Of a stretch of DNA of 64,000 nucleotides, positions 24,589 to 27,831 are shown one piece after another. Every line of letters starts with the position of its first letter. Within the stretch, counting starts at the first letter, position 1. The translations under genes were made by a program, and so were the position numbers. The DNA comes from Clavibacter phaseoli (GTDB taxonomy: Bacteria > Actinomycetota > Actinomycetes > Actinomycetales > Microbacteriaceae). Under the pieces are notes generated by a model, which worked only from the letters and a program-made list of their open reading frames with translations, was not told the origin of the DNA and ran no database searches. The stretch spans positions 59,062 through 123,061 of the forward strand of contig NZ_CP040787.1 in NCBI RefSeq assembly GCF_021922925.1, read 5' to 3'.

Positions 24589-26508
24589 TCAAGCCGCCTC
24601 ACCGAGATATTGCCATCGCGCCTCGGGATTGAGGGAGCCGTCGAGTACAAGACGTCGGGCGGATCGATGGTCGGCGAGGGTGCGCGTCCGGGGATAGCGG
24701 GGCCAGACACGTTCACCGGAAGAGGGAGCCGCAAAGAGCGGGCGGCTGGATGCTGCGGGCCGTCGGGGTCGCGATCGGGGGTTGGTGTGCATGGTGATGA
24801 GTTCTGCGTTCCACCAGGCCCAGACCTCGCGCTCCGCCTGATACCGGCGAGTACGGTCATCTAGGTAACCGAAGATGTCGAGGGTTCGTGCGGCCGTATC
24901 CCGGAGATCTCGTACGGCTCGTGCCCACCCGTTGACATGGGTCTTGATGAGCCGGTGGCGGCGGAGCCGGCTGAGGATCGTGGCGGTATGGCGGGTACTG
25001 ACTCCGAGTAGGCGTGCTGCGCTGTCGACGGTGAGGGCGTCGTGCTGCCCGAGGGTGGCGTAGAGCCGGCCGGCGAGGTGTCCGAGGCCGCTGCGTGTGA
25101 ACAGGTCGTGTCTCTGGTCGGTGAGTTCGTGCTCGAGGACGCTGACGAGTTCGGCGCGATGGGCGAAGAGTTCAGCGGGGGCGGCGGGGTTATGGAGTGG
25201 TTGTGACCGGACCGAGCTTCTGTCTGTGGAAAGTCGCCAGGTCACTCGCCATTCGGCGGCATTGCCGCCGTCGGTGGGGGAGACGCGGGTGATGAAGCCG
25301 GCGTCGGCGAGGACGCGGAGGGCGTCTGCTGCGGTGGTGCGGCCGAGGCCGGTCATGAGGGCGAGGTCGCGGATGGAGGCGGCGATGGTGCGCTTGCCGG
25401 TCTGGAGGGTGAGGTAGGTGAGGGCGGTGAGGATCGAGCGGCGGGAGGCGTCGGCTTCGCTGCGGCCCCATCGGCCAGGGGTGACGCGGAAGGAGGTGAG
25501 GATGGCGTCGACGTCGGCGACGATGGCCTGCAGCTCCGTGAGGTCCTGGGGTTCGCGGCGGGGGAGCGGGCGCTGGACGGCGGCGTACTGCTGGGCCTTG
25601 GCCCACTGCCGCTCGAGGCGTTCGGCGGCTTCCTGGCTGGTGCGGGCCTTGCGGGTGCCGCGGCCGGTGTTCTTGGTGCGGTAGTGCTCCATGCCGGGAG
25701 CGGTGCGGGCGGCGTGCTGGACGTCGGTCAGCGTCCAGCCGGCATTGGCGGCGGCGAGGAGGCACATGAAGCCGGTCCAGGAGGGGTTGCCACCTCCGCC
25801 GATGGTGGCCATGTGGGCGGTGCCGGCCTTGCTGAGGGGCCGGTGCGCCTGGTGCCGAGTGTCGACGGGTCCGGAGGGGGTGCTGTCGGCGGCGCGGGTG
25901 GCGGGCATGCGGTCGGTGAGTAGCGCGGTGAGCGCGTCGAGGTCGGCCGTCGTCGTCGACGGGGCCAGGAGTGCGGTGATGTCGCCGGTGAGAACGCGCG
26001 AGCTGGTGCCGTCGCGGTGGGGCGACAGCGGGGGACGGGCGGCGCCCTCGGCGGGGTTGCGGAGCATGCCGTGGTCGAGGGTGGAGAAGTTCGCGCGCGC
26101 GGCCGTGGCCAAGGCGCCGACCTGGGCCGCCTCGGCGCCGCCGTTGACGGCGATCCAGACGTGGCGGCCGCCGGCGCCGGAGGAGCGGCAGAGGACGTGT
26201 GGGATCGCGATCTCGTCGAGGGTGCGGGAGAGCACGGCCGCCTGGTCCTGGGCTTGCTCCATGAGCTCGGGGACGACGCCGGTGCTGTCCTTACCGTCGA
26301 AGTCGAAGCAGAGGAGCCTGTATCGGCCCGCGGAATCTGCGAGTCGGATGGCCCACGGCGTCATGGGCGCGTCCGGCCCGAGCGGGTGCAGGCGCGGGTA
26401 GCTGTTGCTGTCGAGGCGGCCGTAGGCGTCACGGATCATCGCGCGCACCTGGTCGCGTGGACTCAGGCGGCGCGTCAGTTCCCACGCGGAGTCGACGGAC
26501 GGCGACAC
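24589..26508 (-). CDS. Plasmid replication initiator with primase-type domain and HTH region
   Basis: About 639 residues from the GTG at 26508. The N-terminal third resembles archaeo-eukaryotic primases: FDFDGKD (about 68-74, metal-binding acids) and RSSGAGGRHVWIA (about 108-120, nucleotide-binding SGxGxH). The middle has a primase-C-terminal-like helical part (NPSWTGFMCLLAAANAGWTL). Two HTH-like stretches follow: TIAASIRDLALMTGLGRTTAADALRVLADAGFI and DSAARLLGVSTRHTATILSRLRRHRLI. This build is known for actinobacterial plasmid and ICE replicases. The start is uncertain: a good AGGAG lies 8 nt before an in-frame ATA at 26565, aligned with the ATG of a duplicated leader at 27086. The leader is covered by an antisense RNA candidate. 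Confidence 0.8.
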   Translation of the reverse strand: MSPSVDSAWELTRRLSPRDQVRAMIRDAYGRLDSNSYPRLHPLGPDAPMTPWAIRLADSAGRYRLLCFDFDGKDSTGVVPELMEQAQDQAAVLSRTLDEIAIPHVLCRSSGAGGRHVWIAVNGGAEAAQVGALATAARANFSTLDHGMLRNPAEGAARPPLSPHRDGTSSRVLTGDITALLAPSTTTADLDALTALLTDRMPATRAADSTPSGPVDTRHQAHRPLSKAGTAHMATIGGGGNPSWTGFMCLLAAANAGWTLTDVQHAARTAPGMEHYRTKNTGRGTRKARTSQEAAERLERQWAKAQQYAAVQRPLPRREPQDLTELQAIVADVDAILTSFRVTPGRWGRSEADASRRSILTALTYLTLQTGKRTIAASIRDLALMTGLGRTTAADALRVLADAGFITRVSPTDGGNAAEWRVTWRLSTDRSSVRSQPLHNPAAPAELFAHRAELVSVLEHELTDQRHDLFTRSGLGHLAGRLYATLGQHDALTVDSAARLLGVSTRHTATILSRLRRHRLIKTHVNGWARAVRDLRDTAARTLDIFGYLDDRTRRYQAEREVWAWWNAELITMHTNPRSRPRRPAASSRPLFAAPSSGERVWPRYPRTRTLADHRSARRLVLDGSLNPEARWQYLGEAA

Positions 26509-26571
26509 GCCGATGGTCGTCTCAGGTCGTGGTTCTGGCGCTTGCGGGCGCGATGAAGCTACTATGGCGAC

Positions 26572-26716
26572 ATCTCCTCTGGAGGTATGGCAGAGCCCCG
26601 GTTGGTAGCCGGTAGGTATGTGCTGGAGCTCGGACCCGTGGTTGGTAGCCGGTAGGTGGGTCAGAGCTACGAATCTTCGAGAGCCCGTCGTTGGTAGCGA
26701 CGGGCTCTCATTCGTT
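26572..26716 (+). ncRNA. Candidate counter-transcribed RNA A, antisense to the replication leader
   Basis: On the plus strand a TACTAT -10-like hexamer (26560-26565) is followed by ~145 nt containing stem 1, GCTCGGACC (26628-26636) with GGTCAGAGC (26659-26667), 8 of 9 pairs, then 13 nt beginning TAC, then stem 2, GAGCCCGTCG-ttggtag-CGACGGGCTC (26681-26707), and a TTCGTT tail. Copy B at 27085-27211 has the same order, spacing and sequence blocks. Antisense RNAs ending in a terminator over a rep leader are standard in copy-number control. The -35 is not clear, and expression is inferred. Confidence 0.5.
26600..26657. repeat. Direct repeat in the replication leader, 40-bp period
   Basis: GGTTGGTAGCCGGTAGGT occurs at 26600-26617 and again at 26640-26657. 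A shorter copy of its start, GTTGGTAGC, forms the loop of the hairpin at 26690-26698. The repeat may be a binding site for the small regulator encoded just upstream, or part of RNA structure. Confidence 0.65.
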
Positions 26717-27086
26717 AACTGGTCGTCGGGGTGGCCTCCTCGGAAGCGGTCGCGGGGGAGAGCACGGGCAGTGCTCCCAAGTCGGTACGCAGCTGTGCTG
26801 CGAGTCGCTCGAGGTAGAGCGACATCGAGAGGTTGCCGGAGGCTTCGGCGGCGGCCTGGAAGGCGGCCTCGGTCTCGGGCGCCAGTCGGATCTTGCGGGG
26901 GACGGCGATCTCGCCGGTGGGACGTCGGTTGCGTCGGGTGCCGGCGTGAATGCTCGTCATGTCGCAAGCCTGGCGACTAAGGGGTCCACTAAGTCGCAGG
27001 CGGGTGGCCGTGTCGCCGGATCCGTAGGCAGATTCCGTGGCGTGTACGGCGACAACCCGAAGCTCGTGGGTTATGCTCGCGGACAT
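26715..27086 (-). CDS. Small ribbon-helix-helix-like regulator upstream of the replication gene
   Basis: The conserved part, from MTSIHAGTRRN onward (81 aa), contains IAVPRKIRLAPETEAAFQAA, a basic beta-strand followed by helix, then SMSLYLERLAAQLRTD, which is the RHH/CopG pattern. The 27086 start has a perfect AGGAGG 7 nt upstream and adds 42 residues, but those codons are poor in GC at the third position, so the ATG at 26960 may be the true start and the first part a leader. It stops 8 bp before the hairpin of RNA A. As a CopG-like protein directly upstream of rep, it probably represses replication or plasmid genes. Confidence 0.65.
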   Translation of the reverse strand: MSASITHELRVVAVHATESAYGSGDTATRLRLSGPLSRQACDMTSIHAGTRRNRRPTGEIAVPRKIRLAPETEAAFQAAAEASGNLSMSLYLERLAAQLRTDLGALPVLSPATASEEATPTTS

Positions 27087-27211
27087 AGAGAGACCTCCTG
27101 TGAAGGCTGGTTGATCTGGATTAGCTCGAACCTCGGCGCCGGCAAGCAGTGAGGGTGAGAGCTACAACACGTGCAGGAGCCCGTCGCGGAAGCGGCGGGC
27201 TCCTTCGTTTT
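27085..27211 (+). ncRNA. Candidate counter-transcribed RNA B, antisense to the leader of the 27086 gene
   Basis: Second copy of the element at 26572. A TATGCT hexamer (27073-27078) sits where TACTAT sits in copy A. Stem 1 is GCTCGAACC (27124-27132) with GGTGAGAGC (27154-27162); 14 nt later comes stem 2, AGGAGCCCGTCGC-ggaa-GCGGCGGGCTCCT (27175-27204), with tail TCGTTTT. Shared blocks are GCTCGRACC, GCCGG, GGTSAGAGCTAC and GAGCCCGTCG. The T tail is on the plus strand only, which favours a plus-strand transcript over a 3' end of the minus-strand gene at 27210. Confidence 0.5.
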
Positions 27212-27449
27212 AGGCGACGTCCGCGATGGGCAGCTCCTGACGTGTGGGGATGACTGCGGGAGGGTTGGCGACGAGCTCGGGCATGCCGAGGTTCTGGGCG
27301 AGCAGTGCAGCGATGTAGTCGCTGACGCTCATGCCGCGCATGTCGGCTTGGGCCTTGACGGCCTCGCCGAGGGGCGCGGGGACCCGGGAGAGGAGCGCCT
27401 GACGGTCGCCCTTCGCGGGTCGTCCTCCGTGGTGTCGCTGTGCAGCCAT
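27210..27449 (-). CDS. Second small RHH/CopG-like protein (79 aa)
   Basis: Begins MAAQRHHGGRPAKGDRQALL, basic and typical of plasmid CopG or antitoxin proteins with a GRPAKGDR strand entry. It continues VPAPLGEAVKAQADMRGMSVSDYIAALLAQ, matching the helix-turn-helix of RHH folds, and a short tail. No Shine-Dalgarno precedes the ATG at 27449, but a TACTGT -10-like hexamer lies 7 nt upstream, so the mRNA may be leaderless. It lies between the SSB-like gene and the rep-associated regulator in the same direction. A partner toxin is not seen, so a DNA-binding maintenance role is more likely. Confidence 0.65.
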   Translation of the reverse strand: MAAQRHHGGRPAKGDRQALLSRVPAPLGEAVKAQADMRGMSVSDYIAALLAQNLGMPELVANPPAVIPTRQELPIADVA

Positions 27450-27486: not shown

Positions 27487-27831
27487 TCACTTCGGCGGCG
27501 TGTCTGATCCGAGTCGCGCGACACGCGGCATCTCCGATGACACGCTGCGCGCGTCGACTGTGGCGAGCACGAGATCCTCATCCTCCCCGGTGCGCGGCGG
27601 ACGGCGCAGCCGGAGCTCTCCGTCGATGCGGACGTCCGCGCCGGCGCGGAAGTCGAGCAGGACCGCGACGGCCAGTGATCCGCGGCAGATGACTTCGCAG
27701 CACGCCTGGGGAAGTGGCGACAAGTCCTGGCCGGCGGTGTCCGCGTAGGTGAAGGTCGCCGTGAGCGGGCCGCCCTCCGTGTCCGCGAGCATTGGCCCGT
27801 CGATGATCGTCCCGTGCATCCGAACCCGCAT
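27487..27831 (-). CDS. OB-fold, SSB-like small protein (114 aa)
   Basis: Sequence order resembles a divergent single-stranded DNA-binding protein: MHGTIIDGPMLADTEGGPLTATFTYA parallels the first strands of SSB. CCEVICRGSLAVAVLLDFRAGADVRIDGELRL parallels the Trp-containing strand, helix and VxVxGxL strand, and LVLATVDARSV is the last strand. It lacks the aromatic stacking residues and the acidic tail of housekeeping SSB, so binding may differ. It diverges from a winged-helix regulator across a 73-bp region containing an inverted repeat. Another OB-fold function is possible. Confidence 0.55.
   Translation of the reverse strand: MRVRMHGTIIDGPMLADTEGGPLTATFTYADTAGQDLSPLPQACCEVICRGSLAVAVLLDFRAGADVRIDGELRLRRPPRTGEDEDLVLATVDARSVSSEMPRVARLGSDTPPK

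What the first reader, a model, noticed from the sequence alone, without database searches (positions are those of the whole stretch)
26560..27211. Duplicated structured RNA, antisense to the leaders of the replication gene and a CopG-like gene
Two plus-strand elements about 500 bp apart share order and sequence: a -10-like hexamer (TACTAT at 26560, TATGCT at 27073) before GACAT, stem 1 GCTCGRACC / GGTSAGAGC with a 21-22 nt loop, a 13-14 nt linker starting TAC, and stem 2 GAGCCCGTCG / CGRCGGGCTC followed by TTCGTT. Loop sequences differ while the stems are kept. Copy B ends in TCGTTTT, so a plus-strand transcript fits. Each is antisense to the ribosome-site region of the minus-strand gene beside it. 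This looks like a counter-transcribed copy-control RNA that was duplicated to govern two genes, which I have not seen described for this replicon type.
Basis: partly seen in the sequence, partly recalled or inferred. Interest (0 to 1): 0.8.

Follow-up and report, generated by a model that had tools for sequence, protein, structure and literature searches.

The report
Stacked antisense RNAs controlling plasmid replication
The two folded elements are best read as antisense control RNAs of plasmid replication genes: they belong to a widespread, apparently unnamed RNA family that moves between plasmids, and this plasmid seems to have kept the control RNA of an earlier replication-gene start next to its present one.

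Summary
Both plus-strand elements are found by a profile trained only on non-Clavibacter sequences (E 7e-23 and 7e-10). They belong to an RNA family without an Rfam match, in Micrococcales plasmids, between the stop codon of a small CopG-like gene and the start of rep. Covariation, 121 G-U against 19 A-C cells, a -10 box at a fixed distance and a one-sided U-tract point to the plus (antisense) strand. "Counter-transcribed copy-control RNA" is thus well supported, though no transcript has been seen. "Duplicated" is not: A and B are two lineages (67% identical). B is a pCM2-like leader left behind with a neutrally evolving remnant of a rep 5' end; A is another leader type that now serves rep. 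Leader type switched at least 9 times on the Rep tree, the module also precedes the unrelated pCM1-type Rep, and stacks occur in three genera, perhaps six. Stranded copies largely keep promoter and fold. Nearest precedents: pMV158 CopG/RNAII for layout, Pseudomonas REx-C modules for swapping. New variant of a known kind. Whether stranded RNAs regulate the gene beside them, act in trans, or merely decay slowly is open.

The parts
27210..27449 (-). CopG1, 79-aa CopG/ribbon-helix-helix-like gene; its stop codon overlaps the 3' end of ctRNA B
   Evidence: weak Pfam CopG_antitoxin, E 0.014, below cut-off
27072..27077 (+). -10 box of ctRNA B (TATGCT)
   Evidence: TANNNT at exactly -12 from the anti-start CAT in 35 of 36 distinct B-type leaders
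27083..27211 (+). ctRNA B, inferred extent about 129 nt
   Evidence: -10 box, anti-start, two stem-loops, terminator with U-tract; ends inferred
27122..27164 (+). stem-loop 1 of B (apical part about 27132-27149)
27175..27211 (+). stem-loop 2 of B, intrinsic terminator with U-tract
26961..27086 (-). SD-ATG start of B's leader and remnant of an older rep 5' end (MSASITHE...), open in frame into gene 2
   Evidence: dN and dS of similar size
26715..26960 (-). gene 2, 81-aa gene resembling the RHH-like genes upstream of other elements (no Pfam match); its stop codon overlaps the 3' end of ctRNA A
   Evidence: purifying selection among close relatives
26560..26565 (+). -10 box of ctRNA A (TACTAT)
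26571..26716 (+). ctRNA A, inferred extent about 146 nt
   Evidence: ends inferred
26598..26612 (+). extra 5' hairpin of A-type leaders (CCGG-TTGGTAG-CCGG)
26627..26668 (+). stem-loop 1 of A
26679..26716 (+). stem-loop 2 of A, terminator with weak U-tract
24589..26565 (-). rep: primase-polymerase-like plus winged-helix replication protein; likely AUA start at 26565-26563
   Evidence: start codon inferred

Best explanation
Each element encodes a small plus-strand RNA (about 130-145 nt) transcribed against the leader of the minus-strand gene beside it. Transcription starts at a -10 box just inside that gene, runs over the complement of its start region and Shine-Dalgarno sequence, forms stem-loop 1 with a variable tip, and ends at the stem-loop 2 terminator, which overlaps the stop codon of the preceding RHH-like gene. 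Pairing with the RHH-rep mRNA, begun at the tips or the 5' tail, would block translation of rep and so set copy number and incompatibility, as RNAII does in pMV158. The RHH protein probably represses the operon promoter (inferred by analogy). Leader, RNA and RHH gene travel as a cassette: a newly acquired cassette takes over rep while the old one is left upstream. In this window A is the working rep control and B is the stranded control of an earlier rep start, now covering the start from which gene 2 can be read. Shown by sequence comparison: the RNA family, its strand, conserved -10 box and terminator, the cassette layout, leader switching, stacking, retained structure in stranded copies. 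Inferred: transcription, pairing, inhibition of rep, any action of B.
For: Elements of at least 45 bits lie upstream of rep in 37 of 39 rep loci (L009 has 28.5 next to rep and 39.9 further up, L030 24.9; most of these rows were also in the model). A profile without any Clavibacter row still finds both window copies. Structure: 92.3% of cells paired, 15 of 27 pairs with double changes, covariation score 0.244 against 0.155 shuffled (0 of 500) and at most 0.112 when slid. Strand: G-U 121 against A-C 19 cells, still 31 to 9 with 13 rows under 70% identity; RNAalifold -27.8 plus, -18.7 minus; at least 4 T in the 9 nt after stem 2 in 44 of 48 rows on the plus side, 6 of 48 on the other. Promoter: TANNNT at one offset in 35 of 36 distinct B-type leaders, among them all 11 stranded rows tested (6 of these are Clavibacter orthologues). 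Stop codon of an upstream ORF within 2 nt of the element's end in 52 of 57 hits picked; the 5 misses score 40.6 bits or less. Leader type changes at least 9 times on the Rep tree. The same module precedes the unrelated pCM1-type Rep, pCM1 itself at 51.2 bits. Tip entropy 1.17 bits against 0.47 and 0.54 in the two sides of stem 1, 0.71 in stem-loop 2, 0.87 in the linker.
Against: No RNA data; no copy-number or incompatibility test. No -35 consensus and no sigma-70 pair found. The minus strand folds well too, as it must for a full antisense pair. A's U-tract is weak. Stranded copies pair slightly less than rep-proximal ones, 87% (8 rows) against 93% (40 rows). No plasmid was found whose working rep leader carries B's tip. 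The RHH nature of the upstream proteins rests on a weak Pfam match and family resemblance.
Confidence: 0.85

Rival explanations
1. The elements are sense-strand leader structures (attenuator or protein-binding leader of the minus-strand operon); the plus strand only mirrors them.
For: Sense leaders also fold better than shuffles, A with z -4.7. A small hairpin seems to hold the SD of B-type leaders (seen by eye, not counted).
Against: G-U far exceeds A-C on the plus strand, consensus folding favours it, and the -10 box and U-tract are oriented for plus-strand transcription.
Confidence: 0.06
2. The hairpins are DNA sites: Rep-binding repeats or a single-strand origin.
For: Repeats of GTTGGTAGC within A; Rep has weak matches to winged-helix DNA-binding domains.
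Against: By eye on the alignment, A's repeats are not shared by B or most relatives; placement exactly between a stop codon and a ribosome site, with -10 box and terminator, is not expected of an origin; the same element precedes an unrelated Rep.
Confidence: 0.04
3. B is a relic without function, left by leader replacement and not yet decayed.
For: The ORF remnant behind it evolves neutrally; stranded copies pair slightly less well; no present target plasmid found. Over all six relatives compared, 27 of 98 columns of B's core vary, most of this from L005, against 16 of 97 for A's core.
Against: In four close relatives B's core is 100, 100, 100 and 98% identical while the remnant is 94, 89, 93 and 94% (L044, L045, L046, L063); in the divergent L005 (core 80%) 8 stem pairs differ from the window: 6 are standard pairs, 2 of them double compensatory changes, and 2 are not paired; -10 box kept in all 11 stranded B-type rows tested; stranded copies in three or more genera.
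Confidence: 0.25
4. A and B arose by tandem duplication of one element within this plasmid.
For: Same order, orientation and structure.
Against: A and B are 67% identical while B is 84-88% identical to rep-proximal leaders of other plasmids, leader types differ, and the gene before each element belongs to a different RHH-like type.
Confidence: 0.07

Closest known systems
pMV158 CopG / antisense RNAII control of repB (PMC4485353, passages read)
   Same: CopG repressor gene, then an antisense RNA gene in the intergenic region with terminator, opposite the region just before rep translation starts; RNAII determines incompatibility there.
   Different: RNAII is 48 nt with one hairpin; here about 130-145 nt with two or three. 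pMV158 replicates by rolling circle; this Rep is primase-polymerase-like. No Rfam family matches; the RNAs were not compared directly.
Pseudomonas REx-C control modules (PMC5304414, abstract and passages read)
   Same: Control module with putative antisense RNA exchanged among non-homologous rep families; incompatibility lies in the module and is overcome by a few changes in one stem-loop.
   Different: Different hosts and Rep families; no RHH gene and no stacking of an old module beside the new one in the passages read. Sequences not compared.
pCG1-family antisense RNA (cgrI) in Corynebacterium glutamicum (PMC13088423, passages read)
   Same: Antisense copy control in an actinobacterial plasmid; mutating its promoter raised copy number in that vector.
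   Different: Rolling-circle replicon; the RNAs were compared only through the Rfam search, which gave nothing.
Crenarchaeal pRN1 orf56 (repressor) / orf904 (replication protein) operon (PMC4234260, passages read)
   Same: Repressor gene cotranscribed with the replication protein gene; that the repressor is CopG-like, the protein a primase-polymerase, and that countertranscripts were reported elsewhere, is recalled.
   Different: Archaeal; the words antisense and countertranscript do not occur in the main text searched.

Membership tests
Plasmid counter-transcribed (antisense) control RNAs | Complementary to the leader or translation-start region of rep | tested here: met
   covers SD and start region in window and relatives
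Plasmid counter-transcribed (antisense) control RNAs | Own promoter on the opposite strand | tested here: inconclusive
   -10 box conserved at a fixed distance, but no -35 found and no start site mapped
Plasmid counter-transcribed (antisense) control RNAs | Stem-loops with variable tips, ending in a terminator | tested here: met
Plasmid counter-transcribed (antisense) control RNAs | Is transcribed and inhibits rep in trans | not testable with these tools
   no RNA or reporter data
pMV158 CopG/RNAII system | RHH repressor gene directly upstream, antisense RNA in the gap before rep | tested here: inconclusive
   position met; RHH assignment weak by Pfam; repressor role untested
pMV158 CopG/RNAII system | Rolling-circle (HUH) Rep | tested here: not met
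   Rep N-terminus matches primase-polymerases
Known Rfam RNA families | Match to a covariance model | tested here: not met
   no match at gathering score in the window nor at E up to 5 in 26400-27400
REx-C-like exchangeable control modules | Same control module found with unrelated Rep families | tested here: met
REx-C-like exchangeable control modules | Module alone carries incompatibility | not testable with these tools
   only tip variability seen

The most novel reading that the evidence does not exclude
Plasmids of this group collect stacks of antisense control RNAs. After a leader swap the old RNA gene stays active under its own promoter and terminator and acts in trans on plasmids that still use the old leader, so a stack is a set of incompatibility weapons, while in cis it throttles the RHH gene fused behind it. 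The working leaders of the other (A) type drive rep from an AUA/AUC/AUU start codon, which would tie rep output to initiation stringency as well as to the antisense RNA.
Probability: 0.2. Interest if true: 0.8.

Novelty: new variant of a known kind. Interest (0 to 1): 0.6.

Why it matters
It gives a testable replication-control system to plasmids whose replication modules are hard to recognise (for Arthrobacter pA19BH1, which carries this leader at 100.2 bits, the authors' attempts to identify a replication system failed; PMC6305408, passages). It predicts compatibility groups from stem-loop tips in Clavibacter and relatives, including the pCM1 and pCM2 plasmids of C. michiganensis. If stranded RNAs still act, plasmid competition by stored antisense RNAs would be a new idea to test.

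Tried and rejected
Promoter and terminator consensus scan: only B's terminator; no promoter pair. Rfam: no match. Folding z-scores do not separate the strands, so pair-type counts and RNAalifold were used instead. Incompatibility test by shared tips: 0 of 22 element pairs from the same host or plasmid share a tip, 10 of 1631 other pairs do; consistent but too weak to count; 6 of 72 elements had no tip by the pattern used and 8 near-identical Clavibacter rows were left out of the 1631. Phages: no match to B. Phylum-wide model search: 20 of 296 genomes at E 1e-3, the own genome included, the best outside the family 37.5 bits; that hit (L122) and two family hits (L118, L120) lack the gene context and were taken as chance. 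Order-wide search: 5 of 297 genomes at E 1e-5, the own included; the other four hold five hits of 37-42 bits, of which L136 and L139 show the same layout and look real, L134 and L135 are similar in part, L137 is unclear. Solved-structure sequence search for CopG1: nothing useful. Homologue search for CopG1: 2 proteins only. Literature: ten searches; only the best 1-20 rows of each were seen, in an open-licence library, and none listed a paper on an antisense RNA of this replicon type. Rows dropped: the Rep tree uses 56 of 66 loci, 10 lacked the motif used to cut the body; alignment A1 holds 48 rows, being the 48 of 66 elements under 93% identity, with two of them replaced by the window's own copies; the -10 test left out the stranded copies of L009 and L054. 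A-type is the remainder after the B pattern, and L047 was set to B by eye.

Full report
WHERE IT IS. The 1301-base stretch around the elements and the 661-residue rep frame are 100% identical to Clavibacter phaseoli plasmid pCCh. On the minus strand the order is CopG1 (27449-27210), element B, a remnant ORF and gene 2 (27086-26715), element A, rep (to 24589), and a ParA-like gene (23829-23161). Rep relatives are named 'hypothetical protein', 'helix-turn-helix protein' or 'IscR family regulator' in databases. The predicted structure is of middling confidence (mean pLDDT 70.7, pTM 0.39), but the best solved-structure matches are primase-polymerases (CRISPR-associated Prim-Pol E 5e-5; RepB' primase 8e-4), in line with a Pfam AEP-TOTE match below its cut-off (E 8e-4). 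That it is the replication gene is therefore well supported, not proven.

THE ELEMENTS ARE REAL AND SHARED. A scan of genome contigs with Rep gave 39 loci. In 37 of 39 the covariance model finds an element of at least 45 bits next to rep; L009 has 28.5 next to rep and 39.9 further up, L030 24.9. Most of these rows and both window copies were in the model, so a profile was also trained on 53 non-Clavibacter elements; it finds B at E 7e-23 and A at 7.4e-10. In 299 genomes of the family, 65 have a hit at E 1e-3, but only 25 reach 45 bits (counted from the table). Of these 25, 22 also have a match to the Rep protein (in G134 a partial one). The other three (G171, G205, G297) go with the pCM1-type Rep described below: G171 and G297 by direct comparison, G205 because its contig has the length of the Herbiconiux plasmid in which one search found a relative.

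STRUCTURE AND STRAND. On 48 elements, 92.3% of cells are paired, 15 of 27 pairs have changes on both sides, and the covariation score is 0.244 (shuffled mean 0.155, 0 of 500 as high; slid versions at most 0.112). The tool warns that related sequences inflate this, and the structure came from the alignment. The strand is decided by pair types: G-U 121 cells against A-C 19. After clustering the counts are 103:18, 52:12 and 31:9 at 90, 80 and 70% identity (42, 22 and 13 rows). Consensus folding gives -27.8 for plus and -18.7 for minus. Stem 2 is followed by at least 4 T in 9 nt in 44 of 48 rows, while the same test in the other direction holds in 6 of 48. Single-sequence folding does not separate the strands.

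PROMOTER AND PLACE. In B-type leaders TANNNT stands exactly 12 nt before the anti-start CAT in 35 of 36 distinct sequences, with varied middle letters (TATGCT, TACAGT, TATAGT, TAATCT and others); three further TANNNT fall elsewhere in the span scanned. In A-type leaders TACTAT, TACGAT and the like stand just before the start region, with a looser anchor (the commonest offset holds 18 of 31). The 3' end meets the stop codon of an upstream ORF of at least 55 codons within 2 nt in 52 of 57 hits picked; the five misses score 40.6 bits or less. The upstream proteins look like ribbon-helix-helix proteins by their patterns and their relation to each other; Pfam supports this only weakly for CopG1 (E 0.014, below cut-off) and not for gene 2.

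TWO LEADER TYPES AND THEIR SWAPPING. B-type: core, a small hairpin at the SD, then ATG of rep about 30 nt from the core. A-type: an extra hairpin (CCGG...CCGG in many), then SD, then the -10 region. By pattern 27 of 66 loci are B, with L047 set to B by eye, and the remaining 39 are called A. On a tree of 56 Rep bodies the type needs 10 changes, at least 9 forced by well-supported branches; shuffled labels need 18.8 on average and none of 500 as few, so the type is clustered but not stable. Near neighbours such as L026/L028 and L057/L004 differ in type. L047, whose Rep is 36.8% identical to the window's, has a leader nearly the same as that of L051 (83% Rep). Four loci without the window's kind of Rep (L111, L114, L117, L119) carry a second Rep family, similar to one another and without a BLAST match to the window's Rep at E up to 1. 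Relatives of L114's protein include the annotated replication protein of pCM1 of C. michiganensis NCPPB 382 (43.6% over 36%), and pCM1, C. capsici pCM1, C. sepedonicus pCSL1 and a Curtobacterium plasmid have the element at 51.2, 48.8, 53.1 and 42.4 bits; a Rhodococcus plasmid with a relative (L133) has none.

WHY NOT A DUPLICATION. A and B cores are 67% identical. B's best matches outside its own orthologues are rep-proximal leaders of Clavibacter plasmids (pCM2 88%, two others 87%), followed by Cryobacterium leaders at 86%; A's best is a Frondihabitans leader (75%). CopG1 is most like upstream proteins of one set of loci, gene 2 of another (L082, L008, L031, L059). Behind B the sequence ATGTCCGCGAGCATA resembles a B-type rep start (ATGTCCCAGAGCATA in Cryobacterium). 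The 42 codons before gene 2 have dN/dS of about 0.7-1.6 against six relatives (few changes in the close ones), while gene 2 shows about 0.13-0.32 against five close relatives and 0.57 against the distant L005, where gene 2 looks partly decayed. Other stacks show the same plan: L029 and L031 (Subtercola; three elements in L031), L073 (unnamed, near L029) and L036 (Rathayibacter) have an old leader, a rep-start remnant, then the next RHH-like ORF or element; Cnuibacter (L058), Herbiconiux (L054) and Leifsonia (L009) have weaker second hits.

IS B STILL USED? For: in four close relatives B's core is 100, 100, 100 and 98% identical, while the remnant is 94, 89, 93 and 94% (L044, L045, L046, L063). 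In the divergent L005 (core 80%) eight stem pairs differ; six are standard pairs in L005, one of them unpaired in the window, two are double compensatory changes, and two are not paired. All 11 stranded B-type rows tested keep the -10 box, six of them Clavibacter orthologues. Against: stranded copies pair in 87% of cells against 93% for working ones; over all six relatives B's core varies in 27 of 98 columns, A's in 16 of 97 and CopG1 in 34 of 237; and the ten plasmids with B at 95% or more are the same ten that carry both elements, so no current target in trans is known. I put function for B at roughly three in four, in cis on gene 2 more likely than in trans.

A SECOND ODDITY. A-type rep frames are open back to the SD but mostly lack ATG, GTG or TTG there. 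In 31 of 39 A-type loci an in-frame ATA/ATC/ATT followed by GT stands where a start codon should, and none of these 31 has a canonical in-frame start within 16 nt before it; L030 has a GTG 21 nt before it behind another SD, and in L057 a GTG follows 12 nt later. Eight loci lack the pattern and three of these (L009, L023, L024) have ATG instead. In the unrelated pCM1-type Reps the hexamer is in frame in 8 of 8 loci, L114 and L132 being the same plasmid, and the first canonical start lies more than 190 nt downstream in the Curtobacterium plasmid. The hexamer is also the mirror of the antisense -10 box, so its conservation alone proves nothing; its frame and the missing start codons are the evidence.

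KNOWN OR NEW. Layout is like pMV158 CopG/RNAII; module exchange is like Pseudomonas REx-C; antisense control in actinobacterial plasmids is known for pCG1. New here, as far as the searches named in Tried and rejected reach: the RNA family itself, its use by two unrelated Rep families in Micrococcales, and the stacking of old and new control RNAs.

Noticed in passing
window 26574-26560 (minus) and A-type leaders among the fetched loci: A-type rep genes seem to start at AUA/AUC/AUU: 31 of 39 A-type loci have an in-frame ATH-GT and none of these a canonical start within 16 nt before it; the same hexamer is in frame in 8 of 8 pCM1-type Rep loci.
   Followed up: partly
window 26601-26609, 26641-26649, 26690-26698: The three hairpins of element A share the 9 nt GTTGGTAGC, with UUGG of the U-turn (YUNR, recalled) type; all three together were seen only in the Clavibacter A elements of the aligned set, the first hairpin's loop also in L033.
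   Followed up: partly
L129, L132 (pCM1, pCSL1): The element also precedes the replication protein of pCM1 and its relative on pCSL1, a family unrelated to the window's Rep.
   Followed up: yes
window 27073-27090 and 27775-27792: 18-nt inverted repeat (89%) linking B's start region with a site inside a neighbouring ORF.
   Followed up: no
L044 3612-4301: Beside the replicon of C. californiensis pCCa lies a gene annotated as HBL/NHE enterotoxin family protein.
   Followed up: no
   Followed up: partly
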